From positions 1,116,001-1,180,000 of the forward strand of contig NZ_JAJNCZ010000001.1 in the NCBI RefSeq assembly GCF_021026345.1: a stretch of DNA of 64,000 nucleotides. Direction: 5' to 3'. This DNA comes from Rhizobium sp. GN54 (GTDB taxonomy: Bacteria; Pseudomonadota; Alphaproteobacteria; Rhizobiales; Rhizobiaceae). Positions 13,949 through 26,386 of this stretch are shown here, piece by piece. The notes beneath the pieces were generated by a model that was not told the origin of the DNA, searched no databases, and worked only from the letters and a program-made list of their open reading frames with translations. Position 1 is the stretch's first letter. Each line of letters opens with the position of its first letter. The position numbers and the translations under genes were made by a program.

Positions 13949-14120
13949 TACATTCGTTTTTCTGAAGTGCTTGTGCACGCTGGCGTTCACTTCGGCGCCG
14001 GGCGAGCGGATGATCGGTCAAGCGGCGGGACCGCGCCGCCATGCGTAGGTTTGTCGCATCACCGCTGTCGTGTATTTGTCATACAAAATCTGTAAGGGAA
14101 GGCTGGCGGTTGCCAAAGGC

Positions 14121-14268
14121 AAAAAAAAACAAGGCTGAAAGCCTTGTTTTTAAAGTATCGCGTGATCTTTGCCCGTTTCCGGTGGCAGCGGCTAGGCGCG
14201 CCAAGATCTGATCCTCCCAAGACTTGACCGCGAAATTGGCAAGAATTTGTACTTCCTGCCTGTTTTGT
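14121..14268 (-). ncRNA. Candidate trans-acting sRNA, alpha-r9 (Smr9C)-like by position
   Basis: On the minus strand, a promoter-like pair (ATGACA, 17 bases, TAGTTT at 14303-14275) faces a perfect 12-bp hairpin followed by nine U (14151-14121). No protein gene lies on this strand here, so a ~148-nt transcript is the simplest reading. I recall that the rhizobial alpha-r9 sRNA (Smr9C of Sinorhizobium meliloti, about 149 nt) is encoded beside proS; the position and length agree, but I cannot compare the sequences. A stronger promoter pair further upstream (see separate entry) would give a ~225-nt RNA instead. The RNA would contain a purine-rich GGGAGGA segment near its middle. Confidence 0.55.
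14125..14151. terminator. Perfect bidirectional Rho-independent terminator
   Basis: The arms AAAAACAAGGCT (14125-14136) and AGCCTTGTTTTT (14140-14151) are exact reverse complements around a 3-base loop. Read on the minus strand the stem is followed by nine T; on the plus strand by five T. It can end the nuo-to-DUF1467 transcript as well as a minus-strand RNA. Confidence 0.85.
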
Positions 14269-14351
14269 GGCCTGAAACTAGCTCAAAGGTTGGGCGTTGT
14301 CATCTGATTTTTTGCATATTTGTTACACTTGGAGAAATTTTTTCCGTTGAC

Positions 14352-14380
14352 TTTATAATCGCCATTCACGTTATTGTCAT
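14352..14380 (-). promoter_or_regulatory. Candidate sigma-70 promoter facing the sRNA region
   Basis: On the minus strand ATGACA (14380-14375) and TATAAA (14357-14352) are separated by exactly 17 bases, each matching the sigma-70 consensus at five of six positions. There is no minus-strand protein gene downstream before the terminator at 14151-14125, so it would drive an untranslated RNA. A plus-strand TATAAT (14354-14359) overlaps it and might instead serve proS, but lacks a good -35. Confidence 0.45.
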
Positions 14381-14559
14381 CCCCCGCTTTCCGGGCCCCG
14401 TTCCCGATCTCCCGCGCGATCCGGCATTCGGACGATTTCGTCGAAGCACGGTGCGTCCGGGTTCACTTCCGCCGGTGAAGCGTCTATGAACGCTCCGAAT
14501 TCAACGTCATTTCGCCCGAATCCACGGCTAGGCGAAACCTGTCTCTTTGGAACCCCGCC

Positions 14560-15888
14560 ATGCGTCTTTCCCGCTTCTTCATGCCCATCCTCAAGGAAAA
14601 TCCCAAGGAGGCGGAAATCGTCTCGCATCGGCTGATGCTTCGCGCCGGGATGATCAAGCAGCAGTCGGCCGGCATCTATACCTGGCTGCCGCTCGGCAAG
14701 CGCGTGCTGGACAAGGTCAACGCCGTCATCCGCGAAGAACAGAACCGCTCGGGCGCGGTCGAACTCATCATGCCGACCCTGCAGTCGGCCGAGCTCTGGC
14801 AGGAGAGCGGGCGCTACGACGCCTATGGCAAGGAGATGCTGCGCATCAAGGACCGCCAGGACCGCGCCATGCTCTACGGCCCGACCAACGAGGAGATGAT
14901 CACCGACGTCTTCCGCTCCTACGTCAAGTCCTACAAGGACCTGCCGCTCAACCTCTACCATATCCAGCTGAAGTTCCGCGACGAGATCCGTCCGCGCTTC
15001 GGCACCATGCGCTCGCGCGAGTTCCTGATGAAGGACGCCTATTCCTTCGACCTCAACCGCGAGGGGGCGGAGCACGCCTATAACCGCATGTTCGCCGCCT
15101 ACCTGCGCACGTTCACGCGCCTCGGCCTGCGCGCGATCCCCATGCGCGCCGACACCGGCCCGATCGGCGGCAACCTCAGCCACGAGTTCATCATCCTGGC
15201 CGATACCGGCGAATCCGAAGTGTACTGCCACAAGGATTTCCTCGGCTTCGATATCCCCGGCGAGGACACGAATTTCGAGGACGTCGCCGGCTTGAAGGCG
15301 ATCTTCGACAAGTGGACGTCGCGTTACGCGGCCACCTCCGAAATGCACGACGAGGCTTCGTTCGCAGCGATCCCGGAGGGCGAGCGCCTGTCGGCCCGCG
15401 GCATCGAGGTCGGCCACATCTTCTATTTCGGCACGAAATATTCCGAGGCGATGGGCGCCAAGGTCCAGGGACCGGACGGCAAGGAGCACGCGGTCCACAT
15501 GGGATCCTACGGCATCGGCCCGACCCGGCTCGTGCCGGCGATCATCGAGGCCTCCCACGACGAGAACGGCATCATCTGGCCGAAGGCGGTCGCGCCCTTC
15601 GAGGTGGTCGTGATCAACATGAAGGCGGGTGACGCGGCCTGCGACGCGGCGAGTGAGACGATCTACGGCGCGCTTCTGAAGGCGGGCGTCGACGTGCTCC
15701 TTGACGACAAGGACGAGCGCGCGGGCACGAAGTTCGCCACCGCAGACCTGATCGGCGCGCCGTTCCAGGTCGTCGTCGGGCCGCGCTCGGTCGCAGCCGG
15801 CGAGGTCGAGGTCAAGGACCGCAAGACCGGCGAGCGCGAGACGCTGACGATCGACGCCGCGATCGCGCGCCTGACGTCGGCCGGCTGA
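14560..15888 (+). CDS. proS: Proline-tRNA ligase, short alphaproteobacterial type
   Basis: This class II aminoacyl-tRNA synthetase charges tRNA-Pro. At 442 residues it is the short form without the ~180-residue editing insertion of E. coli ProS, as is normal in alphaproteobacteria. Class II motifs are visible: [17 protein letters not shown] (motif 2 region: [21 protein letters not shown]) and [14 protein letters not shown] (motif 3). The anticodon-binding domain follows. The ATG at 14560 begins the conserved [13 protein letters not shown]. Confidence 0.97.
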
Positions 15889-15924
15889 GGTCAGGCGGGC
15901 CGGGACCGGGCAAGTGCGCGACGG

Positions 15925-15944
15925 GGCGGAATCAACATTCCGCC
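15925..15944 (+). terminator. Stem-loop after proS
   Basis: GGCGGAAT and ATTCCGCC form an exact 8-bp stem with a 4-base loop, 37 bases after the proS stop. No T run follows, so it may be a transcript-stabilising 3' hairpin or a weak terminator rather than a classical intrinsic terminator. Confidence 0.5.
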
Positions 15945-15966
15945 ATCACCGTAACGCCCTAATTCC

Positions 15967-16016
15967 ACTGCATAATTTTACCCGCAAATCGATTCCGGTT
16001 TCGGCGATTATGCAGT
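15967..16016. repeat. Rhizobial-type intergenic palindromic repeat
   Basis: ACTGCATAAT (15967-15976) and ATTATGCAGT (16007-16016) are exact 10-bp reverse complements separated by 30 bases. The intervening sequence contains an imperfect internal palindrome (AATCGATTCCGG). I recognise such TGCATAATTTT palindromes from Rhizobiaceae intergenic regions, but the copy number in this genome cannot be seen here. Confidence 0.55.
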
Positions 16017-16096
16017 AGCATCAGGCGCAGATTCGAGATGCTGCCGAATCGCGTCCGCCGGGCGCGGGCTTTGGCGGCGACAGGACCGGAGGTATC

Positions 16097-17404
16097 ATGG
16101 CGGAAGCGACGGGCGAGGGCACCGTGGTCGAGGCGAAAGCGGCGCCCGCAAGCCGCCCGTTTTCCGGCTTCGAACGCATGGTCGCATGGCGCTACCTCCG
16201 CTCGCGGCGCAAGGAAGCGTTCATCTCGGTCATTGCCGGCTTCTCCTTCATCGGCATCATGCTCGGCGTCGCCACGCTGATCATCGTCATGGCGGTGATG
16301 AACGGGTTTCGCACCGAACTGATCTCGCGCATTCTCGGCATCAACGGTCACATGATCGTCCAGCCGATCGACGGACCGTTCGACAACTATGCGGACCTGG
16401 CCGAGCGCTTCTCGAAGGTGCCGGGCGTCAAGCTGGCGATCCCGCTGGTGGAGGGCCAGACGCTGGCCTCTGGCGCTGGCGGCGCCGGAACCGGGGCGCT
16501 CGTCCGCGGCATCCGCGCCGATGACTTCACCCGGCTCAAGACCGTTTCCGACCACATCAAGGCCGGCGACATGGTCGGTTTTGCCGCCGGCGACGGCCTC
16601 GCGATCGGCGCGCGCATGGCCGAGCAACTCGGCATTTCCGCCGGCGACCAGATCACGCTGGTGGCGCCCGAGGGCGACGTGACCCCGCTCGGCGTCAATC
16701 CGCGCGTCAAGAGCTACACCGTGTCCGCGGTCTTCGAGATCGGCATGTCGGAATACGACGCCACGATCATCTACATGCCGCTGGAGGAGGCCCAGCTCTA
16801 TTTCAACGCCGAGGGCCTGGTGCAGTCGATCGAACTCTTCGTCGACAATCCCGATGCCGTCGACGCGCTCCGACAGCCGCTGGAGGCCACCGCCGAGCGG
16901 CAGATCTACATCACCGACTGGCGCCAGCGGAACCGCACCTTCTTCTCCGCGCTCGAGGTCGAGCGGAACGTGATGTTCATGATCCTGACGCTGATCGTGC
17001 TCGTCGCCGCGCTGAACATCATCTCCGGGCTGATCATGCTGGTGAAGGACAAGGGCAGCGACATCGCCATCCTGCGCACCATGGGCGCCAGCTCCGGCTC
17101 GATCATGCGCATCTTCTTCATGACCGGGGCCGCGATCGGCACGGTCGGGACGATCGCCGGCGTCCTGCTCGGCGTCGTCGTCTGCCTCAACGTCGAATCG
17201 ATCCGCCAGTTCTTCTCCTGGCTTTCCGGCCAGACCCTGTTCGATCCGGAACTCTATTTCCTCAGCCAGCTTCCTGCGGACATGAATTTCGGCGAGACGG
17301 TCTCGATCGTCGTCATGGCGCTGGCGCTGTCCTTCCTGGCCACGATCTTCCCCGCATGGCGCGCCTCCAAGCTCGATCCCGTGCAGGCCCTGCGGTATGA
17401 ATAG
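16097..17404 (+). CDS. lolC: Lipoprotein-releasing ABC transporter permease
   Basis: This 435-residue inner-membrane LolC/LolE-family protein takes outer-membrane lipoproteins from the inner membrane and hands them to LolA. The N-terminal signature FERMVAWRYLRSRRKEAFIS is followed by one helix (residues ~45-70), a large periplasmic MacB-like domain and three C-terminal FtsX-type helices, ending AWRASKLDPVQALRYE. Alphaproteobacteria usually have this single permease, which would act as a homodimer. Preceded by GGAGGT six bases before the ATG; lolD follows after nine bases. Confidence 0.95.
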   Translation: MAEATGEGTVVEAKAAPASRPFSGFERMVAWRYLRSRRKEAFISVIAGFSFIGIMLGVATLIIVMAVMNGFRTELISRILGINGHMIVQPIDGPFDNYADLAERFSKVPGVKLAIPLVEGQTLASGAGGAGTGALVRGIRADDFTRLKTVSDHIKAGDMVGFAAGDGLAIGARMAEQLGISAGDQITLVAPEGDVTPLGVNPRVKSYTVSAVFEIGMSEYDATIIYMPLEEAQLYFNAEGLVQSIELFVDNPDAVDALRQPLEATAERQIYITDWRQRNRTFFSALEVERNVMFMILTLIVLVAALNIISGLIMLVKDKGSDIAILRTMGASSGSIMRIFFMTGAAIGTVGTIAGVLLGVVVCLNVESIRQFFSWLSGQTLFDPELYFLSQLPADMNFGETVSIVVMALALSFLATIFPAWRASKLDPVQALRYE

Positions 17405-17413
17405 GACCGACCG

Positions 17414-18100
17414 ATGAACGCGCGCGTGGCACTCAAGTTGACCGGCGTCGATCGCCACTATGGCCAGGGCGAGACGGTGCTGTCGATTCTCAAGGGCGCG
17501 GACTTCACCCTGCGCAGCGGCGAGATCGTAGCACTCGTGGCGCCTTCGGGCACCGGCAAGTCGACGCTCTTGCACGTCGCCGGCCTGCTGGAGCGGCCCG
17601 ATGCCGGCGACGTCGTCGTCAACGGCCATGCCTGCGCCGGGCTGGGCGACGAGGAGCGCACGGCGATCCGCCGCAACGAGATCGGCTTCGTCTACCAGTT
17701 CCATCATCTCCTGCCGGAGTTCTCGGCGCTGGAGAACATCATGATGCCGCAGCTGATCGCCGGCCTTTCCAAGCCGGAGGCCGGCGAACGGGCGAGGCAA
17801 CTGCTCGACTACATGCGGATCGGCCATCGCGGCGACCACCGTCCCTCGGAGCTCTCCGGCGGCGAGCAGCAGCGCGTGGCGATCGCCCGTGCCGTCGCCA
17901 ATGCGCCGATGCTGCTTCTGGCCGACGAGCCGACCGGCAATCTCGATCCCGAGACGGCCGGTTACGTGTTCGAGGCGCTGCAGGCGCTGGTGCGCCAGTC
18001 GGGGCTGGCCGCACTGATCGCCACCCACAACCACGAGATCGCCTCGCTGATGGACCGCCGCGTGACCATCGAGGACGGCAAGGTGCGCGATATGCAGTGA
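17414..18100 (+). CDS. lolD: Lipoprotein-releasing ABC transporter ATPase
   Basis: This 228-residue ATPase pairs with the preceding permease. It has Walker [10 protein letters not shown] (residues ~43-51), the ABC signature [17 protein letters not shown] and Walker [13 protein letters not shown]. The LolD/MacB subfamily is indicated by the Q-loop context [17 protein letters not shown]. The two genes form one operon. Confidence 0.97.
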
Positions 18101-18157
18101 GCCGCGGTCGCGGCTCTTCGCGGTCCGGCCGGTTCGGTCCGCCGCGCCCGAATTCGG

Positions 18158-18739
18158 CTATTCTTGCGCCAGCCCGCAGGCCTTCCGCCCGATCTTGTCG
18201 CGCCAATCCTCGAATGCGACCTGCGCGCCCTTGGTCGCGACCGGCTTGCCGTTCGCGGTTCCCTTGCCGGTGAGCACATTCAGGTCGCAGCTTTCGGTGT
18301 GGTTCGGATCGAGCGTGTCGTAGGCGGAGTAGGTGTAGCCGGCGACGACGAACCGGGACTCCCGATAGGCAATTGTGACGCGCTGCTCCCAGCGGTCGCG
18401 CCCGATCGCGCTGTTCTGCGAGGTGAGCTCGATCGAGCTGTTCGCAAGGGCGGCCACGCCCGCCTCCTGTCCGTAGACGGTGGCGCTGCCCCAGATCTTG
18501 TTCGGCACCGAGACCTTCAGCGTCAACCGCGATGCGCCGTCGTCGGCGAGATAAATGTAGACGCCGCTGTCGTCGTCGCTGCCCTCCGGCGGCCTAGCGA
18601 TCACGGCGAGGTCCTGCACCCCGTCCCGGTTCCAGTCTCCGACCGCCGCCGCCGTGATCCGGTCGGCGGGGAAGTCGCTCGCCGCAGCCGCCGCCGGCAG
18701 CAGGGCGGCAAGGGCGAGCGGTAGTGCGGTCCTCGTCAT
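18158..18739 (-). CDS. Exported protein of unknown function, FG-GAP/VCBS-like
   Basis: This 193-residue protein has a clear Sec signal peptide (MTRTALPLALAALLPAAAAA). Shortly after it comes VGDWNRDGVQDLAVIARPPE, resembling a calcium-binding FG-GAP/VCBS-type repeat (DxNxDGxxD). The remainder is not recognised. The start at 18739 was chosen because it creates the signal peptide; the open frame continues 47 codons upstream over the LexA-box region and is not convincing there. It is convergent with lolD. Confidence 0.7.
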   Translation of the reverse strand: MTRTALPLALAALLPAAAAASDFPADRITAAAVGDWNRDGVQDLAVIARPPEGSDDDSGVYIYLADDGASRLTLKVSVPNKIWGSATVYGQEAGVAALANSSIELTSQNSAIGRDRWEQRVTIAYRESRFVVAGYTYSAYDTLDPNHTESCDLNVLTGKGTANGKPVATKGAQVAFEDWRDKIGRKACGLAQE

Positions 18740-18843
18740 GCGCGTTTCCCTGTTCGGTGCGCCCGGAGAATAGGAAATGCCTTGGGGACAGTCCAGCGTT
18801 CCCGCCCGCCGTGTGCCGGAACGGCTATTGCAAAAATCGGGGG

Positions 18844-18900
18844 TTGACGCAAGAACAAAAATAGAACAAACTAAAAACATAAACAGATTGGAGACGTCAA
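18844..18900 (+). promoter_or_regulatory. LexA (SOS) box with promoter and RBS for the microprotein
   Basis: GAAC (18853-18856), seven bases, GAAC (18864-18867) exactly fits the alphaproteobacterial LexA operator GTTC-N7-GTTC read on the other strand. A TTGACG -35-like hexamer at 18844-18849 overlaps its upstream side, so bound LexA would block the promoter. GGAG at 18890-18893 is well placed for the ATG at 18901. Confidence 0.7.
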
Positions 18901-18987
18901 ATGACCGATTTCATGCGTGAACTCGCCGCCTTTACCTCCATTGCCATGTTCGTTGCGAGCCTGTCCGTCCTCGCTCTCGGCCTGTAA
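18901..18987 (+). CDS. SOS-controlled 28-aa membrane microprotein, SidA-like candidate
   Basis: ATG to TAA encodes 28 residues: a short polar N-terminus (MTDFMRELAAF) followed by one membrane helix (TSIAMFVASLSVLALGL). It has a good RBS (GGAG, seven bases before the ATG) and lies 33 bases behind a perfect LexA box. In Caulobacter crescentus the SOS-induced division inhibitor SidA is a 29-residue single-helix inner-membrane protein that acts on late divisome proteins (FtsW/FtsN). Size, topology and LexA control agree here, so this is a candidate equivalent. Homology is not proven; sequences this short are hard to align. Confidence 0.65.
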   Translation: MTDFMRELAAFTSIAMFVASLSVLALGL

Positions 18988-19145
18988 CCTCCGCGACCGC
19001 CGGCCACATCGCTCCGCATCCGCAACGATCTCGCATCAGGCTGCGGGAACCCATTGCGGGGATAAGGGGAGCGGCGGAAATGTTTGACTGGACTTCCGCG
19101 GCCCGAATCCGCTTATCCTTGCGCCTCTGAAATGGAGTGGCAAAG

Positions 19146-22100
19146 ATGGCGCAGGCGGTTGCGGGAGACACGGGCGGACATTCGGCGGGGGGCGGCGTCC
19201 AGTTCGTCCATCTGCGTGTCCACTCGGCCTATTCGCTGCTGGAAGGCGCGCTGCCGATCAAGAAGATCCTCGGCAAGGCGGTCTCCGACAGCCAGCCGGC
19301 GATTGCGATCACCGACACCAACAACCTGTTTGCCGCGCTCGAATTCTCCCAGAAGGCCGTGGGCGACGGCATCCAGCCGCTGATCGGCTGCCAGTTGTCG
19401 ATCGACATGGAAGACGAGGGCGAGGGCGAGCGTCGCGGTCCGTCGCAGGCGCTGGCCAAGCTGCCGTCGATCGTCATCCTGGTCGCGACCGACGCCGGCT
19501 ATGCCCGCCTGATGGATCTCGTCAGCCGCGCCTATCTCGGCGGCGAGGGCAGCGGCCATTCGGTGCACCTCATGCGCTCGTGGCTGGAGGAGGGGACGGA
19601 CGGCCTGATCGCGCTGACCGGCGCCTCGTCCGGCCCGGTCGACATGGCGCTTTCCGCGGGCCAGCCGGCCGCCGCCGAGGCACGGCTTCTGGAACTGAAG
19701 CGCCTGTTCGGCGACCGGCTCTATGTCGAACTGCAGCGGCACGCGGACTATGACCGCAAGCACGAGCGGCGGATGATCGAGTTGGCCTACCGGCACGATC
19801 TGCCGCTGGTGGCGACGAACGAGCCGTTCTTTCCGACGCCGGAGGAATACGAGGCGCATGACGCCCTGATGGCGGTCGCCCACAATGCGATGGTGTCGGA
19901 CGACAACCGTTTCCGGCTTTCGCCCGACCACTACCTGAAGAGCCGTTCGGCCATGGCCGCTCTTTTCGCCGATCTGCCGGAAGCGCTGGAGAACACCGTC
20001 GAGATCGCGCGGCGATGCTCCTTCGTCCTGAAGACGCGCGCGCCGATCCTGCCGCGCTTCACCGGCGCCACCGACGACGCGGAGGAGGCCGAGCGCGCCG
20101 AGGCGGCGGAATTGCGCCGCCAGGCCGTCGAAGGGCTCGAAGGGCGCATGGCCGCGCTCGGCCTGTCGCCGGGCTACAGCGAACAGGACTACCGCGAACG
20201 GCTGGATTTCGAGCTGGGCGTCATCGAGCGGATGAAGTTTCCGGGCTACTTCCTGATCGTCGCCGACTTCATCAAGTGGGCCAAGCAGCAGAACATCCCG
20301 GTCGGGCCGGGGCGCGGTTCGGGGGCGGGCTCGCTCGTCGCCTATGCGCTGACGATCACCGACGTCGATCCGCTCCGCTTCTCGCTGCTGTTCGAGCGCT
20401 TCCTCAATCCCGAGCGCGTCTCGATGCCGGACTTCGACATCGATTTCTGCCAGGACCGTCGCGAGGAGGTGATCCGCTACGTCCAGCGCAAGTACGGCCG
20501 CGAACAGGTGGCGCAGATCATCACCTTCGGTTCGCTGCAGGCGCGCGCGGCACTGCGCGACGTTGGCCGCGTACTCGAGATGCCCTACGGCCAGGTCGAC
20601 AAGATCTGCAAGCTGGTGCCGAACAACCCGGCCAACCCGACGCCGCTCTCCAAGGCGATCGAGGAGGAGCCGAAGCTTCTGGAAGAGGCGGAAAAGGAGC
20701 CGGTCGTCGGCCGCCTGCTCGATATCGCCCAGAAGATCGAGGGCCTCTACCGCCACGCTTCGACCCATGCCGCCGGCATCGTGATCGGCGACAGGCCGTT
20801 GTCACAACTGGTGCCGATGTACCGCGATCCGCGCTCCGACATGCCGGTGACCCAGTTCAACATGAAATGGGTCGAGCAGGCGGGGCTGGTGAAGTTCGAC
20901 TTCCTCGGCCTGAAGACGCTGACGGTGCTGAAGACCGCGGTCGACTTCATCCGCAAGCGTGACATCGAGGTTGCGCTGGAGAGCCTGCCGCTCGACGACC
21001 GGCTCACTTACGAGATGCTCTCGCGCGGCGAGACGGTGGGTGTGTTCCAGGTGGAAAGTGCCGGCATGCGCAAGGCGCTGATCGGCATGCGCCCCGACTG
21101 CATCGAGGACATCATCGCGCTCGTCGCCCTCTACCGGCCGGGCCCGATGGAGAACATTCCGACCTACAACGCCCGCAAGCACGGGGAGGAGGAGATCGAA
21201 TCGGTCCATCCCTCCATCGACTACCTGCTGAAGGAAACGCAGGGCGTCATCGTCTACCAGGAACAGGTGATGCAGATCGCCCAGGTTCTGTCCGGATATT
21301 CGCTCGGGGAAGCCGACCTTCTGCGCCGCGCCATGGGCAAGAAGATCAAGGCCGAGATGGACCAGCAGAGCGAGCGCTTTGTCGATGGCGCCGTCAAAAA
21401 CGGGGTCTCCAAGCCGCAGGCGAAGAACATCTTCGAACTGCTCGCCAAGTTCGCCAACTACGGCTTCAACAAGAGCCACGCGGCCGCCTACGCCATCGTC
21501 TCCTACCAGACGGCCTATCTGAAGGCGCATTATCCGGTCGAGTTCCTCGCCGCGTCGATGACCTACGACATGGCCAACTCCGACAAGCTGAACGATTTCC
21601 GCCAGGACGCCGGTCGGCTCGGTATCACCGTCGTTCCGCCGTCGATCCAGACCTCCTATGCCCATTTCGAGACCGGCGAGAAGAAGATCTATTATGCGCT
21701 CGCCGCCATCAAGGGCGTCGGCGAGGCCGCGGTCCACCATATCGTCGAGGTGCGCGGCGACCGGCCGTTCGAGAGCCTGGAGGATTTCTGCCTCAGGATC
21801 GACCCGAAGCTCGTCAACCGCCGCACCTTCGAAAGCCTGATCTGCGCCGGTGCCTTCGATGGCTTCGGCCACGACCGCGCAGCCCTGATCGCCGGCCTCG
21901 ACCGGCTCATCGGCTATGCCCAGCGCGCGCAGGAGAACAAGACCAGCGGCCAGAGCGACATGTTCGGGGCGGGGGCCGCGACCGGGCCGGAGGTGATCTC
22001 GTTCCCGTCCTATGCGCCCTGGCTGGCGTCCGAGAAGCTGCACCGCGAGTTCCAGGTGCTCGGCTTCTATCTCTCCGCCCACCCGCTCGACACCTACAAC

Positions 22101-22646
22101 GCCATGCTCGCCAAGATGCGCGTGCAGAATTTCGCCGATTTCGCCGTCGCCGTAAAGCAGGGGGCGACCGCCGGCCGCCTGGCCGGCACGGTCACCTCCA
22201 AGCAGGAGCGCAAGACCCGCACCGGCAACAAGATGGGCATCGTCGCCTTCTCCGATGCCTCCGGCCAGTTCGAGGCGGTGCTGTTCTCCGAGATGCTGCA
22301 CCAGTACCGCGACCTGCTGGAGCCGGGAAAGTCGCTGGTGATGACGGTGCAGGCGGAAGAGCGCCCGGAAGGCATCGGGCTGAGGATCCAGACGCTGCGG
22401 TCCCTGGAAGAGGAAGCGCTGCAGCAACAGAAGGCGCTGCGCGTCTTCGTCCGCGACTCGGGCCCCTTGCGCTCCATCGCCGCCCACCTGAACGCCAGGG
22501 GCGACGGCCTCGTCTCCTTCATCGTCATCAAGGACAACGGCGAGCGCGAGATCGAGGTCGAACTCGGCGAGCGCTACCGCATCTCGCCCGAGATCGCCGC
22601 CGCCCTGCGCTCCGCCCCCGGCGTCATCGACGTCGAGATGGTGTGA
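19146..22646 (+). CDS. dnaE: DNA polymerase III subunit alpha
   Basis: The 1166-residue replicative polymerase catalytic subunit has an N-terminal PHP domain (FVHLRVHSAYSLLEGALPIK), the polymerase core with PGRGSGAGSLVAYALTITD and PDFDIDFCQDRR (the PDxDxD catalytic aspartates), a helix-hairpin-helix region, and a C-terminal OB fold (AGTVTSKQERKTRTGNKMGI). Its length equals the E. coli protein. The ATG at 19146 is preferred over the GTG at 19137 because GGAG at 19134-19137 would overlap the GTG. This is the DnaE1 type, not the error-prone DnaE2. Confidence 0.97.
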   Translation: MAQAVAGDTGGHSAGGGVQFVHLRVHSAYSLLEGALPIKKILGKAVSDSQPAIAITDTNNLFAALEFSQKAVGDGIQPLIGCQLSIDMEDEGEGERRGPSQALAKLPSIVILVATDAGYARLMDLVSRAYLGGEGSGHSVHLMRSWLEEGTDGLIALTGASSGPVDMALSAGQPAAAEARLLELKRLFGDRLYVELQRHADYDRKHERRMIELAYRHDLPLVATNEPFFPTPEEYEAHDALMAVAHNAMVSDDNRFRLSPDHYLKSRSAMAALFADLPEALENTVEIARRCSFVLKTRAPILPRFTGATDDAEEAERAEAAELRRQAVEGLEGRMAALGLSPGYSEQDYRERLDFELGVIERMKFPGYFLIVADFIKWAKQQNIPVGPGRGSGAGSLVAYALTITDVDPLRFSLLFERFLNPERVSMPDFDIDFCQDRREEVIRYVQRKYGREQVAQIITFGSLQARAALRDVGRVLEMPYGQVDKICKLVPNNPANPTPLSKAIEEEPKLLEEAEKEPVVGRLLDIAQKIEGLYRHASTHAAGIVIGDRPLSQLVPMYRDPRSDMPVTQFNMKWVEQAGLVKFDFLGLKTLTVLKTAVDFIRKRDIEVALESLPLDDRLTYEMLSRGETVGVFQVESAGMRKALIGMRPDCIEDIIALVALYRPGPMENIPTYNARKHGEEEIESVHPSIDYLLKETQGVIVYQEQVMQIAQVLSGYSLGEADLLRRAMGKKIKAEMDQQSERFVDGAVKNGVSKPQAKNIFELLAKFANYGFNKSHAAAYAIVSYQTAYLKAHYPVEFLAASMTYDMANSDKLNDFRQDAGRLGITVVPPSIQTSYAHFETGEKKIYYALAAIKGVGEAAVHHIVEVRGDRPFESLEDFCLRIDPKLVNRRTFESLICAGAFDGFGHDRAALIAGLDRLIGYAQRAQENKTSGQSDMFGAGAATGPEVISFPSYAPWLASEKLHREFQVLGFYLSAHPLDTYNAMLAKMRVQNFADFAVAVKQGATAGRLAGTVTSKQERKTRTGNKMGIVAFSDASGQFEAVLFSEMLHQYRDLLEPGKSLVMTVQAEERPEGIGLRIQTLRSLEEEALQQQKALRVFVRDSGPLRSIAAHLNARGDGLVSFIVIKDNGEREIEVELGERYRISPEIAAALRSAPGVIDVEMV

Positions 22647-22724
22647 GCGCACCCACCGGCAATCTGCGCAAAACCGCGGCAGCCCCTTGATCGCACCGGC
22701 CCTGTCGGCTACCGACGATCACAG

Positions 22725-22809
22725 GCGGACGTGGCGAAACTGGTAGACGCAAGGGACTTAAAATCCCTCGGAGTGATCCGTACGGGTTCGACCCCCGTCG
22801 TCCGCACCA
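22725..22809 (+). tRNA. tRNA-Leu (UAA)
   Basis: The 85-base gene folds as a class II tRNA: acceptor GCGGACG (22725-22731) pairs with CGTCCGC (22799-22805), discriminator A and an encoded CCA end. The anticodon stem AGGGA/TCCCT encloses loop CTTAAAA, giving anticodon TAA. A variable arm and the T-arm CGGGTTCGACCCCCG follow. It reads UUA, a very rare codon in this GC-rich genome, and UUG by wobble. Confidence 0.97.
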
Positions 22810-22851
22810 CCTACCTGCCATGCCGGCGCACGCCGCGATCGCCCCCTCCGC

Positions 22852-23445
22852 TCACTGCGGAGAAATCGAGAACTTCTGGTCCGACAGCGCCACTGCGCCG
22901 CTGATGGCGTCGCGGAAGCGGTAGCGGACGACATAGTCGCCCTGTGGCGGGCCTTCAGCGCTGAGGGTGAGCGTGAGCTTTGCAAAGATCTCCTGGTTGC
23001 GCATGAAGCCGCGATAGGTGAAGGAGCCGAAGGCCTTCTTCTCCGCCAGCGTCTCGCCCTTGGCGTTCAGGAGTTCCAGGTCGACGGTGAACTGCGCCTC
23101 CACCTTGCCGCCGTCGACCGGCCGCCAGGATAGCCCGACCGGCTCGACATAGGAGATCAGCGGCTCGCCGGTCTTGTAGACGGCGTTCGGGCGCGGCGTG
23201 TACATGCCGTAGCCTTCCGGCGGCTCGGTGACGAAGGTGGCCTTGCCGATCGAAAACGGCAGGCCCGACGAGAAGGCGCCGTAGGCCTCGCGCATCGCCT
23301 CATGCGCGCCGACGGGATTGCCGGACGTCGCCATCTGCTCCGCCTTGGTGGCGGCATCGACCAGCGGGCCGGCCGCTGCCGGCAGGGAGAGGAAGCTGAA
23401 GACGGCGGCAAGCGTCGATGCGGGCAAAGGGGACATTGCGGGCAT
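22852..23445 (-). CDS. Exported protein of unknown function
   Basis: This 197-residue protein has an N-terminal signal peptide (MPAMSPLPASTLAAVFSFLS, cleavage probably after AAA). The mature part is a likely beta-sandwich with FTVDLELLNAKGETLAEKKA and GDYVVRYRFRDAISGAVALS, as in other secreted proteins of rhizobia. I cannot name a function. The start at 23445 is supported by GGAGGAAGA immediately upstream; the upstream part of the open frame is arginine-rich and unconvincing. Confidence 0.75.
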   Translation of the reverse strand: MPAMSPLPASTLAAVFSFLSLPAAAGPLVDAATKAEQMATSGNPVGAHEAMREAYGAFSSGLPFSIGKATFVTEPPEGYGMYTPRPNAVYKTGEPLISYVEPVGLSWRPVDGGKVEAQFTVDLELLNAKGETLAEKKAFGSFTYRGFMRNQEIFAKLTLTLSAEGPPQGDYVVRYRFRDAISGAVALSDQKFSISPQ

Positions 23446-23552
23446 TCTTCCTCCCTCGGATCGTGGCGGAAGGATGCGCAGATGCCGGCGGGCAGTCAAG
23501 CGCCGGCAAGGCACAGGCCTGAAACCGGGCCGAAACCGAGCCTGGAACTGCC

Positions 23553-25007
23553 TCAGCTCTTCCAGAACAGCGGGGTCAGGATGACGAGCACGGTCAGGAC
23601 CTCGAGACGGCCGAGCAGCATCAGGAAGGACAGGAGATAGAGGGCCGGATCGCTCATGCCGGCGAAGGTGCCGGCCGGGCCGATCGACGGCGTGACGCCG
23701 GGGCCGACGTTGGAAAGGGCGGTCGCCGAGGCCGAGATCGCGGTCAGCGCGTCATAGCCCATCAGCCCGAGAAACAGGCCGCCGGCAAAGCAGATCATCA
23801 TGTAGGAGATGAAGAACAAAAAGACGTTGCGCTGCACGTCCGCGTCCACCGTGATGGGACCGTAGCGTACGGCATGGATGCCGTTCGGATAGATGAGCCG
23901 GTAGAGGCCGGAGCGGACGAAATTGAACAGGATGATGATGCGGTAGGCCTTGATGCCGCCGGCGGTCGAGCCGGAGCAGCCGCCCATGAAGGTCGCGATG
24001 AAGGCGAGTATGACGATGAAATGGCCCCAGCTCGTATAATCGTCGCTGGCAAAGCCCGTGGTCGACAGGATCGAAGTGACGGTGAAGAAGGAATGCGCCA
24101 GCGCCTCGTGGAAGGCCACGCCGTTTTCCAGCCGCTGGTAGAGGCTGGCGGCGACCGCGAAGAAGACGACATAGCCGAGGAAGACGATGATCTGCGGGTC
24201 CTTCAGCGTGTCCAGCCGCCCGCGCACGATAAACAGGATCAGGATCGAGAACGGCAGGCTGCTGAGCGTCATGAAGAACGACGCTGCCCACAGCAAGGGC
24301 AGGCTGTCGTAGTAGCCGAAAGAGGCGTCGTGGGTCGAAAGCCCACCGGTCGCCACTGTCGACATCGCATGGTTGATCGCATCGAAGCGGTTCATGCCGA
24401 GCGCATTGTAGGCGATGGCGCAGATGACGGTGAGGAGGACGTAGATCAGGATGAAGGCGCGGGAATAGACCGCCATGCGGGCAAACGGCTTGTCGCCGCT
24501 GTCGGAGGATTCCAGCTTGAAGAAGGACAGCCCGCCGACGCGCAGATAGGGCATGATGAACAGCCCGAGCGCAAGGATGCCGATGCCGCCGAGCCAGTGC
24601 AGCAGCGACCGCCACATCAGGATGCCCGGCGGCGCATGATCCAGCCCGACGATGATGGTGGAGCCGGTGGTGGTGACGGCGGACACCGATTCGAAGACGG
24701 CCTCGGCGAAATCCAGCTTCAGGGACGACATCCAGAACGGGATGGCGCCGATCAGGCAGAAGACCAGCCAGAGCAGGTTGACGACGAGGAAGCCCATCTT
24801 CTTGTTGAAGGGCGGCGGGCCGGCGCGCGTCGCCGCCGCCGTCGCAAGCGACAGCCCGCCCATCATGAAGGCCGAGATCGCGAAGATCTTCCAGTCCTGG
24901 TGGCCGTAGTAGAGGTCGGTCACCATCGGCAGCAGCATCGACAGCGACAGATAGAGACCACAGGTGGCGGCGATGTTGATGGCGGAGCGGTAGATCGTGG
25001 CGTTCAA
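23553..25007 (-). CDS. trkH: Trk-type potassium uptake transporter
   Basis: This 484-residue membrane protein transports potassium with a TrkA partner. Four selectivity-filter-like P-loops are visible, for example SAVTTTGSTI, STVATGGLST, TSILSTTGFASDD and ALSNVGPGVT, each followed by a helix. With TTG at 25007 as start its length matches E. coli TrkH (483). An upstream ATG at 25127 would add 40 unlike residues and overlap the divergent ilvA start, so I reject it. The TTG has only a modest GAG element upstream. Confidence 0.9.
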   Translation of the reverse strand: MNATIYRSAINIAATCGLYLSLSMLLPMVTDLYYGHQDWKIFAISAFMMGGLSLATAAATRAGPPPFNKKMGFLVVNLLWLVFCLIGAIPFWMSSLKLDFAEAVFESVSAVTTTGSTIIVGLDHAPPGILMWRSLLHWLGGIGILALGLFIMPYLRVGGLSFFKLESSDSGDKPFARMAVYSRAFILIYVLLTVICAIAYNALGMNRFDAINHAMSTVATGGLSTHDASFGYYDSLPLLWAASFFMTLSSLPFSILILFIVRGRLDTLKDPQIIVFLGYVVFFAVAASLYQRLENGVAFHEALAHSFFTVTSILSTTGFASDDYTSWGHFIVILAFIATFMGGCSGSTAGGIKAYRIIILFNFVRSGLYRLIYPNGIHAVRYGPITVDADVQRNVFLFFISYMMICFAGGLFLGLMGYDALTAISASATALSNVGPGVTPSIGPAGTFAGMSDPALYLLSFLMLLGRLEVLTVLVILTPLFWKS

Positions 25008-25141
25008 AATCGTCTCGTTCGCATGAGGCGGCGTCAGGGGCGGCGTCGCCGCCACGCTCCGCCCGGAAGAGGACGGGTGGCCTCCGCGGCTACGATATGC
25101 AATAGCCTTTGGCAGGATCAAACTCAAGGATGCCGCAGGTC

Positions 25142-26386
25142 ATGAAACAGGATGTGGAGCGCGCAACCGAAGCTCTGCGCACGCTTTTTCCCGAAACGCC
25201 GCTACAGTTGAACGAACACCTGAGCGCCCGCTACGGCGCGCAGGTCTACCTGAAGCGCGAGGATCTTACGCCGGTCCGGTCCTACAAGATCCGAGGCGCC
25301 TTCAACTTCTTCCGCAAGGTCATCGCCGGGAAGGGCGGGCAGGACAGTTTCGTCTGCGCATCGGCCGGCAACCATGCCCAGGGTTTTGCCTTCGTCTGCC
25401 GCCACTTCGGCGTGAAGGGGACGGTGTTCATGCCGGTGACGACGCCGCAGCAGAAGATCGACAAGACCCGCATCTTCGGCGGCGAGTTCGTCGAGATCCG
25501 CCTCATCGGCGACATCTTCGACCAGTGCTACCGGGCCGCGCAGGAGCATGCGCGCGACACCGGCGCCGTCATGGTGCCGCCCTTCGACGATCCTGATGTC
25601 ATCGAGGGGCAGGCGACGGTGGCGGCCGAGATCGCCGCACAGCTCGGCGACATCAGGCCCGATCTCGTCGTCCTGCCGGTCGGCGGCGGCGGCCTTGCGG
25701 CCGGGGTGACCGGCTATCTCTCCGACAGCGTGCCGCCGGAAGGCTTCGTATTCTGCGAGCCGGAAGGTGCGCCGAGCCTGCGCCGCAGCCTGGAGGCGGG
25801 CGAGGTGGTCACCCTCGATCAGGTGGACAATTTCGTCGACGGCGCCGCCGTCGGCCGGATCGGCGACCTGAATTTCTCAGCCCTGCGCACCTTCGATGCC
25901 GGGCAGGCCATGCTGCTGTCGGAGAACGCGATCTGCGTCACCATCATCGACATGCTGAACGTCGAAGGCGTGGTGCTCGAGCCTGCGGGTGCGCTGTCGG
26001 TCACCGCGCTCGAGGCGCTGGGCCGCGAGCGGCTTGAGGGCAGGACCGTGGTGGCGGTCGTCTCGGGCGGCAATTTCGACTTCGAGCGGCTGCCCGACGT
26101 CAAGGAGCGGGCCATGCGCCACCGTGGCCTGAAGAAATACTTCATCCTGCGCATGGCGCAGCGGCCCGGCGCGCTCCGCGACTTCCTCAACCTGCTCGGC
26201 CCGGAAGACGACATCTCCCGGTTCGAATATCTGAAGAAGTCGGCCCGCAACTTCGGCTCGATCCTGATCGGCATCGAGACGAAGTCGCCGCAGAATTTCG
26301 TCGCCCTGAAGGAGGCCTTCGACGGTGCCGGGCTGCGCTATCAGGACATCACCGAAAACGAGGTCCTCGCGAACCTGATCATCTGA
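25142..26386 (+). CDS. ilvA: Threonine ammonia-lyase
   Basis: This 414-residue PLP enzyme deaminates threonine to 2-oxobutanoate, the first step to isoleucine. The PLP lysine is K49 in RSYKIRGAFNFF; the phosphate-binding loop is VGGGGLAAGV. A C-terminal ACT-like regulatory region (KKYFILRMAQRPGALRDFLN onward) suggests feedback control by isoleucine, as in the single-regulatory-domain type. Starts at 25130 (ATG) or 25109 (TTG) are also possible; I chose 25142 because the conserved sequence begins there. It is divergent from trkH. Confidence 0.92.
   Translation: MKQDVERATEALRTLFPETPLQLNEHLSARYGAQVYLKREDLTPVRSYKIRGAFNFFRKVIAGKGGQDSFVCASAGNHAQGFAFVCRHFGVKGTVFMPVTTPQQKIDKTRIFGGEFVEIRLIGDIFDQCYRAAQEHARDTGAVMVPPFDDPDVIEGQATVAAEIAAQLGDIRPDLVVLPVGGGGLAAGVTGYLSDSVPPEGFVFCEPEGAPSLRRSLEAGEVVTLDQVDNFVDGAAVGRIGDLNFSALRTFDAGQAMLLSENAICVTIIDMLNVEGVVLEPAGALSVTALEALGRERLEGRTVVAVVSGGNFDFERLPDVKERAMRHRGLKKYFILRMAQRPGALRDFLNLLGPEDDISRFEYLKKSARNFGSILIGIETKSPQNFVALKEAFDGAGLRYQDITENEVLANLII

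What the first reader, a model, noticed from the sequence alone, without database searches (positions are those of the whole stretch)
18844..18987. SOS-controlled 28-aa membrane microprotein next to dnaE: SidA-like division inhibitor candidate
The sequence shows a perfect alphaproteobacterial LexA box (GAAC-N7-GAAC at 18853-18867) overlapping a promoter-like TTGACG, a good RBS, and a 28-codon open frame with one membrane helix ending two residues before the stop. Caulobacter SidA, a 29-residue LexA-regulated inner-membrane protein, inhibits late division proteins (FtsW/FtsN). Equivalence is inferred from size, topology and regulation. Such short genes are usually missed in annotation, and I know of no SidA described for this kind of organism.
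Basis: partly seen in the sequence, partly recalled or inferred. Interest (0 to 1): 0.8.

Follow-up and report, generated by a model that had tools for sequence, protein, structure and literature searches.

The report
SidA division-inhibitor orthologue beside dnaE
An overlooked 28-residue membrane protein with a DNA-damage (SOS) switch is very probably the rhizobial version of Caulobacter's SidA, which halts cell division while DNA is repaired, and relatives of it also turn up in phages.

Summary
Observation confirmed: LexA box (18853-18867), TTGACG before it, RBS and 28-codon ORF (18901-18987) are as described. The ORF is in all six congeners examined, is under purifying selection (pN/pS 0.20), and recurs in Rhizobiaceae-like genomes and across the order. 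Of 58 loci found by protein profile (the window's own included), 55 have an exact LexA box upstream; background 9 of 2051 ATGs. The SidA reading gains support beyond size, topology and regulation. In Caulobacteraceae a LexA-boxed TM ORF (29 residues in Caulobacter) lies upstream of dnaE (28 of 50 loci with an exact box). A profile of those alone ranks the window ORF first of 1424 segments (E 0.0027; next 0.93). An order-only profile finds the Caulobacteraceae ORF in 31 of 50 dnaE-upstream regions, all on the dnaE strand. I conclude orthology with SidA; blocking division through FtsW is inferred. A pure dnaE leader is unlikely: 13 of 37 family loci have it without dnaE within 1.5 kb. The letters of C. 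crescentus SidA were not seen; the link rests on length, box, position and these profiles. Unasked for: homologues without a box occur on 8 viral contigs.

The parts
18844..18849 (+). -35-like hexamer TTGACG directly 5' of the LexA box
   Evidence: TTGAC within 16 nt 5' of the box in 44 of 57 loci vs 0.7% background; generic sigma-70 scan found no consensus pair here
18853..18868 (+). LexA (SOS) box GAACAAAAATAGAACA
   Evidence: same motif 62 nt upstream of lexA in this genome; exact box in 55 of 58 profile-found loci
18864..18878 (+). second, overlapping one-mismatch LexA-like box GAACAAACTAAAAAC
   Evidence: two exact boxes in 10 of 57 loci
18890..18893 (+). ribosome-binding site GGAG
   Evidence: a loose RBS-like motif in 57 of 57 loci
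18901..18987 (+). sidA orthologue: 28-residue single-TM microprotein MTDFMRELAAFTSIAMFVASLSVLALGL
19137..22646 (+). dnaE (DNA polymerase III alpha), same strand; GTG at 19137 or ATG at 19146, 149 or 158 nt after the microprotein's stop
   Evidence: ORF; Pfam; dnaE annotated at the same place in S. meliloti Ak57
14560..18100 (+). three co-directional ORFs: class II tRNA synthetase, MacB/FtsX-type permease, ABC ATPase, matching proS-lolC-lolD of the S. meliloti locus by order and length
   Evidence: Pfam

Best explanation
The ORF is the rhizobial orthologue of SidA. DNA damage activates RecA, LexA is cleaved, the promoter with its box just after the -35 element is freed, and a 28-residue inner-membrane helix is made. 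The N-terminal charged turn (R6-E7) is probably cytoplasmic, and the helix with S13, F17 and V18 packs against the membrane part of the FtsW/FtsI/FtsN complex, holding it inactive so that the cell delays constriction until damage is repaired. Shown here: the gene, its box, its conservation, and common ancestry with the LexA-boxed ORF (29 residues in Caulobacter) upstream of dnaE in Caulobacteraceae. Inferred from the Caulobacter work: SOS induction, inner-membrane location, FtsW binding, division block. Topology and contact residues are my inference.
For: Box, TTGAC and RBS recur; lexA of the same genome carries the box; purifying selection; ORF in all 6 congeners; in 247 family genomes 232 match at the loose E <= 5 and, by my hand count of the rows, 190 at E <= 1e-3. 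dnaE within 1.5 kb in 24 of 37 family loci (window included) and 20 of 21 fetched outside the family. Caulobacteraceae: 28 of 50 dnaE loci have an exact box with a TM ORF of the type, 12 more the ORF with only one-mismatch boxes. Reciprocal profiles; hhalign E 2.6e-4, ungapped 1-28. FtsW is in the genome.
Against: The Caulobacter FVWMxC part of the helix is not kept in the window ORF (FVAS instead), so the target contact may differ. Identity to the RI_161 ORF is about 7 of 28 by eye. hhalign's own probability is only 19% for so short a pair. The C. crescentus SidA letters were not seen; 'CC1927 = sidA' is recalled. Positions of SidA suppressors in FtsW could not be mapped safely, and the best guess for the SidA-specific one (A31) is not conserved. 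Of 50 Caulobacteraceae dnaE loci 10 gave no boxed ORF (two of them, L239 and L242, still have the ORF). One-mismatch boxes are common by chance (at most about 8-10% of ATGs), so the 12 count for little singly. 53 of 60 other class genomes have no exact box there. No expression or phenotype data.
Confidence: 0.82

Rival explanations
1. Leader peptide or upstream ORF of dnaE: box and short ORF exist to put dnaE under SOS control, and the peptide itself does nothing.
For: It lies about 150 nt before dnaE on the same strand with no terminator-like site found between, so dnaE may be co-induced; earlier comparative work listed dnaE among SOS-regulated genes (PMC3323433 passage).
Against: The residues, not just the frame, are conserved (pN/pS 0.20; F17 invariant in the 26 sequences). 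13 of 37 family loci have no dnaE within 1.5 kb. Of the 4 of these 13 that I opened, 3 keep a LolD-type ABC ATPase upstream; next on the other side are a lipoyl-ligase-domain ORF or gamma-glutamyltranspeptidase-type ORFs (two tested), all on the other strand; the fourth keeps neither. The phage-borne copies sit in early recombination regions.
Confidence: 0.06
2. SOS-induced membrane toxin of the TisB kind (recalled: about 29 residues, LexA-controlled) that depolarises the membrane rather than blocking division.
For: Same size, one helix, same control (TisB features recalled).
Against: Homology and position link it to the dnaE-linked ORF of Caulobacteraceae. No search for an antisense RNA was made.
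Confidence: 0.07
3. Orthologue of SidA whose division target has changed (for example FtsN, FtsI or a polar-growth factor), since Rhizobiales grow from the pole. This is a variant of the best explanation and overlaps with it.
For: C-terminal half diverged; presumed A31 contact in FtsW not conserved (numbering uncertain).
Against: FtsW is present and the R-E/D...A-L/F-x-S...F-V core is kept.
Confidence: 0.25
4. Chance ORF behind a real LexA box.
For: Short ORFs are common: 142 of 20 residues or more overlap window 14000-26000.
Against: Conservation, codon pattern and reciprocal homology.
Confidence: 0.01

Closest known systems
SidA of Caulobacter crescentus (CCNA_02004)
   Same: Length (28 vs 29 residues), one TM helix, LexA control, place upstream of dnaE (seen in Caulobacter sp. 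RI_161), ungapped alignment with the RI_161 ORF sharing R6, E7, A10, S13, F17, V18.
   Different: FVWMxC replaced by FVAS; a second overlapping box in a minority of relatives; function untested here; compared with Caulobacteraceae ORFs, not with the SidA letters.
DidA of Caulobacter crescentus
   Same: Small single-TM damage-induced division inhibitor acting on the FtsW/I/N complex.
   Different: 71 residues, SOS-independent (DriD), interacts with FtsN (PMC4211646 passages).
YneA / SosA / ChiZ
   Same: DNA-damage-induced membrane proteins blocking a late step of division (PMC13396833 passages).
   Different: From Bacillus, Staphylococcus and Mycobacterium; YneA and ChiZ have a LysM domain (same passages); homology not tested.
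TisB (recalled)
   Same: About 29 residues, hydrophobic, LexA-controlled.
   Different: Type I toxin with antisense RNA; no comparison was made here.

Membership tests
SidA | about 29-residue protein with one TM helix | tested here: met
   28 residues, hydropathy 2.09 over 18
SidA | promoter with a LexA box | tested here: met
   lexA of the same genome has the motif; LexA binding itself not tested
SidA | homologous to the Caulobacter protein | tested here: met
   reciprocal profiles with the dnaE-linked Caulobacteraceae ORFs: first of 1424, 31 of 50; low pairwise identity; not compared with the CCNA_02004 letters
SidA | same genomic place (upstream of dnaE) | tested here: met
   for C. crescentus itself indirect and recalled
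SidA | RecA/LexA-dependent induction by DNA damage | not testable with these tools
   needs transcripts
SidA | binds FtsW and blocks division; FtsW suppressors | not testable with these tools
   FtsW present; suppressor positions not mapped reliably
DidA | about 71 residues, SOS-independent | tested here: not met
   28 residues, LexA box
TisB-type toxin | antisense RNA partner and membrane depolarisation | not tested
   no search for an antisense RNA was made
Any Pfam or NCBIfam family | match over the curated cut-off | tested here: not met
   Pfam DUF5345 at E 0.082, under its cut-off; NCBIfam none

The most novel reading that the evidence does not exclude
SidA is not a Caulobacter speciality but an old SOS division brake of Alphaproteobacteria, shared at least by Hyphomicrobiales, Caulobacteraceae and Parvibaculum-like lineages and anciently placed beside dnaE. 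Temperate phages have captured it, dropped the LexA box and put it in their early recombination region, to stop host division during lytic growth with the host's own kind of FtsW inhibitor.
Probability: 0.45. Interest if true: 0.8.

Novelty: new member of a known kind. Interest (0 to 1): 0.63.

Why it matters
In the papers I could search I found no named SOS division inhibitor for rhizobia. This gives a concrete, conserved and testable candidate, present also in the model Sinorhizobium meliloti. It suggests that a LexA box earlier credited to dnaE serves, at least also, a checkpoint protein. It replaces a one-species protein by a deep alignment showing which residues are kept (R/K-D/E...A-L/F-x-S...F-V), useful for finding out how so short a helix acts on FtsW. 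The phage copies, if functional, would be a new way for phages to block host division.

Tried and rejected
Leads that went nowhere: Pfam and NCBIfam; mapping of FtsW suppressor sites, numbering ambiguous; class-wide profile search, only a few weak true hits beyond the order, replaced by looking upstream of dnaE; promoter and terminator scan, nothing found; viral scans from the other two phage-like contigs: no relatives, or 27 loci without a SidA-like hit; phage-type peptide in the phage collection: no match; in plasmids: two hits at E 7, chance level. L075 is a profile hit without box or dnaE and counts as a miss among the 58.

Results against the wider reading: of 7 class genomes outside the order with an exact box and a TM ORF before dnaE, only 3, all of one family, also match the combined profile at E <= 0.05; the other 4 stay unproven. 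59 of 80 named loci, mostly named as Rhodobacteraceae or its genera, have none (in one of them, L281, only 141 nt upstream was held). None of the ten family genomes of 1.0-1.6 Mb passes E <= 1e-3 (hand count).

Rejected: chance ORF; pure dnaE leader peptide; DidA. Kept as minor: TisB-like toxin; changed target. On rechecking I lowered two odds slightly (best explanation 0.83 to 0.82, novel case 0.5 to 0.45) because of the 4 unproven class hits and the chance rate of one-mismatch boxes.

Papers: seen as passages only: PMC4211646, PMC12700426, PMC10769358, PMC13384398, PMC1839093, PMC3323433, PMC13396833, PMC9578287, PMC11514494, PMC7739468, PMC10811719, PMC9638019, PMC5189948; PMC3616915 searched for four terms, no occurrence. 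The rest only as search listings. Modell 2011 and da Rocha 2008 were not held; what I say of them beyond those passages is recalled.

Full report
WHAT IS THERE. The bare box pattern is not rare in 64 kb (2 found, 1.64 expected). Its significance comes from context and conservation. In the whole genome GAAC-N7-GAACA occurs 37 times against 12 for the reversed control. Sites with an A/T-rich core include one 62 nt before lexA and others before ssb and two ImuA-like ORFs (NCBIfam: LexA and SSB over the cut-off, the two ImuA matches at E 7e-18 and 2e-14 under it).

IS IT A GENE. The DNA block is found in 6 of 6 congeners. In nine close sequences, the window's included, there are about five times fewer non-synonymous than synonymous changes per site (pooled pN/pS 0.20; pairs are not independent). 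A profile of 13 relatives matches 232 of 247 family genomes at the loose E <= 5; by my count of the rows 190 of 247 pass E <= 1e-3, none of them among the ten genomes of 1.0-1.6 Mb. In 249 genomes of the order 155 match loosely. I looked at the 58 best loci of these two searches (37 in the family, 21 outside). The profile does not see the promoter. An exact box lies within 130 nt upstream in 55 (36 of 37 and 19 of 21), two more have one mismatch, one has none; among 2051 other ATGs of the same loci 9 have a box. Nine of the 58, the window's own among them, are from genomes whose ORF built the profile; the other 49 give 47. TTGAC stands within 16 nt before the box in 44 of 57 (background 0.7%); 10 of 57 have two exact boxes.

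NEIGHBOURHOOD. dnaE lies within 1.5 kb downstream in 24 of 37 family loci and 20 of 21 others. Where it does not, I opened 4 of 13: three keep a LolD-type ABC ATPase just upstream and have a lipoyl-ligase-domain ORF or a gamma-glutamyltranspeptidase-type ORF next on the other strand, the fourth keeps neither (Pfam for the three ATPases, one ligase and one transpeptidase). In Sinorhizobium meliloti Ak57 (CP090106.1) the order is proline-tRNA ligase, lipoprotein-releasing permease, ABC ATPase, the microprotein, dnaE; the PLSDB gene table, which is incomplete in general, has nothing at the microprotein, and its promoter has two exact boxes. The window shows the same order, with one more unidentified ORF on the other strand (18158-18739). 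The family of the window is inferred to be Rhizobiaceae from its nearest named matches (Shinella, Sinorhizobium); its genus is unknown to me.

LINK TO SIDA. I searched 80 genomes of that family, 75 gave a dnaE match, and I examined 50 of these loci: the 30 returned plus 20 chosen by me. Upstream of dnaE they carry a LexA-boxed TM ORF, in RI_161 the 29-residue MARIARETLALASVVGFVWMMCSVAYLAA. 28 of 50 have an exact box with such an ORF, 12 more the ORF with only one-mismatch boxes; 10 gave no boxed ORF, though two of these have the ORF (L239, L242). One-mismatch boxes occur before at most 8-10% of ATGs by chance. C. crescentus SidA is a 29-residue inner-membrane protein under LexA that interacts with FtsW (PMC4211646, passages), gene CCNA_02004 (PMC10769358, passage). 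dnaE is CC1926 (PMC1839093, table passage), and dnaE, presumably this one, has been listed as SOS-regulated there (PMC3323433, passage). That sidA is CC1927, the next gene, is recalled. I did not see the letters of SidA itself.

SEQUENCE TEST BOTH WAYS. A profile of 26 Caulobacteraceae ORFs only, run over 1424 stop-to-stop segments of the window, puts this ORF first with E 0.0027; the next has 0.93. A profile of the window's order only, run over both strands of up to 700 nt upstream of the 50 Caulobacteraceae dnaE genes (1142 segments, E-values scaled to 5000), hits 31 loci at E <= 0.05. All 31 hits are the SidA-like ORF on the dnaE strand, 19 with an exact and 12 with only a one-mismatch box; 19 loci are missed. 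Over 3010 six-frame segments, the Rhizobiaceae-type and the other-order profile each have that ORF in all of the 22 top rows printed. Profile-profile alignment is ungapped over residues 1-28, E 2.6e-4, though the program's probability is only 19%. Shared with the RI_161 ORF: M1, R6, E7, A10, S13, F17, V18, with conservative changes at 11 and 14. I conclude orthology.

HOW FAR IT REACHES. Upstream of dnaE in 60 genomes of other families in the class, 7 have an exact box and a TM ORF, in four families; only the 3 of one family also match the combined profile at E <= 0.05, and 53 have no exact box. Among 80 named loci the combined profile, which contains Caulobacteraceae, finds 21: the 18 Caulobacteraceae-like ones, two named Rhodobiaceae and one named Parvibaculum. 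The other 59, mostly named as Rhodobacteraceae or its genera, have none.

MECHANISM. Shown: gene, promoter with LexA box, selection on the peptide, common ancestry with the Caulobacter locus. Inferred from Caulobacter: RecA/LexA-dependent induction, insertion in the inner membrane, inhibition of the FtsW/FtsI/FtsN state that drives constriction. FtsW is present. Against an identical contact, the FVWMxC part is not kept and the SidA-specific FtsW suppressor site (A31) could not be placed safely, my best guess for it not being conserved. I give 0.82 to 'SidA orthologue that inhibits late division' and treat a changed partner as the main open point within it.

A SIDE FINDING. Some family genomes have a second homologue without a LexA box. 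One lies on a contig that equals an IMG/VR viral contig in length and in its RecT gene (G022:C27, 42,186 bases). Its neighbours match exonuclease, RecT and HNH nuclease families of phages. Of 58 viral loci fetched with three neighbour proteins, 9 loci on 8 contigs (7 distinct peptides) carry it at E <= 1e-3 with the order profile, all on the strand of RecT or the exonuclease, none with a box (up to one mismatch) within 150 nt; shuffled segments gave none. All nine came from the RecT and exonuclease searches (31 loci); the 27 loci of the ATPase search had none. This suggests phage-borne SidA relatives; what they do is unknown.

PRINT. Searches of the held open library for SidA with rhizobial names, for SidA-homologue phrases, and for phage-encoded division inhibitors with FtsW showed no paper, in the listings and passages I saw, that names a bacterial SidA division inhibitor outside Caulobacter; the phrase hits were, by title and abstract, about siderophore SidA, nearly all fungal. 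One search listed 15 of 183 papers. The library lacks most subscription papers, including Modell 2011, so 'not described' is not proven.

Noticed in passing
L359 pos 4071, L360 4678, L361 4171, L362 4587, L363 4236, L377 and L378 4693, L379 4926 (viral contigs); L355, L356, L357, L358 in host genomes: SidA-like microproteins without LexA box in phage early recombination regions (MRDLLHDIASFVAVSTFIATFAVWAGYLAEKV and relatives), and in phage-like stretches of host genomes: possible phage-borne division inhibitors.
   Followed up: partly
L347, L348, L350 (unnamed family genomes): Lineages in which box and microprotein stay beside a LolD-type ATPase but dnaE is not at the locus.
   Followed up: partly
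window 18864-18878 and relatives: Overlapping second LexA-like box 11 bp from the first, one mismatch here; two exact boxes in 10 of 57 loci: possible graded or cooperative repression.
   Followed up: no
window 18158-18739, - strand: ORF of 193 residues from the ATG at 18739 with a signal-peptide-like start, divergent from the microprotein, found in the 6 congeners and some relatives; no Pfam family.
   Followed up: partly
CP090106.1 and NZ_CP069303.1 (PLSDB): Replicons of 3.7 and 4.6 Mb that carry dnaE and are filed as plasmids are probably chromosomes.
   Followed up: no
G000 C3:118618 and C4:57006 (L179, L180): Two separate ImuA-like ORFs, each behind a LexA box.
   Followed up: partly
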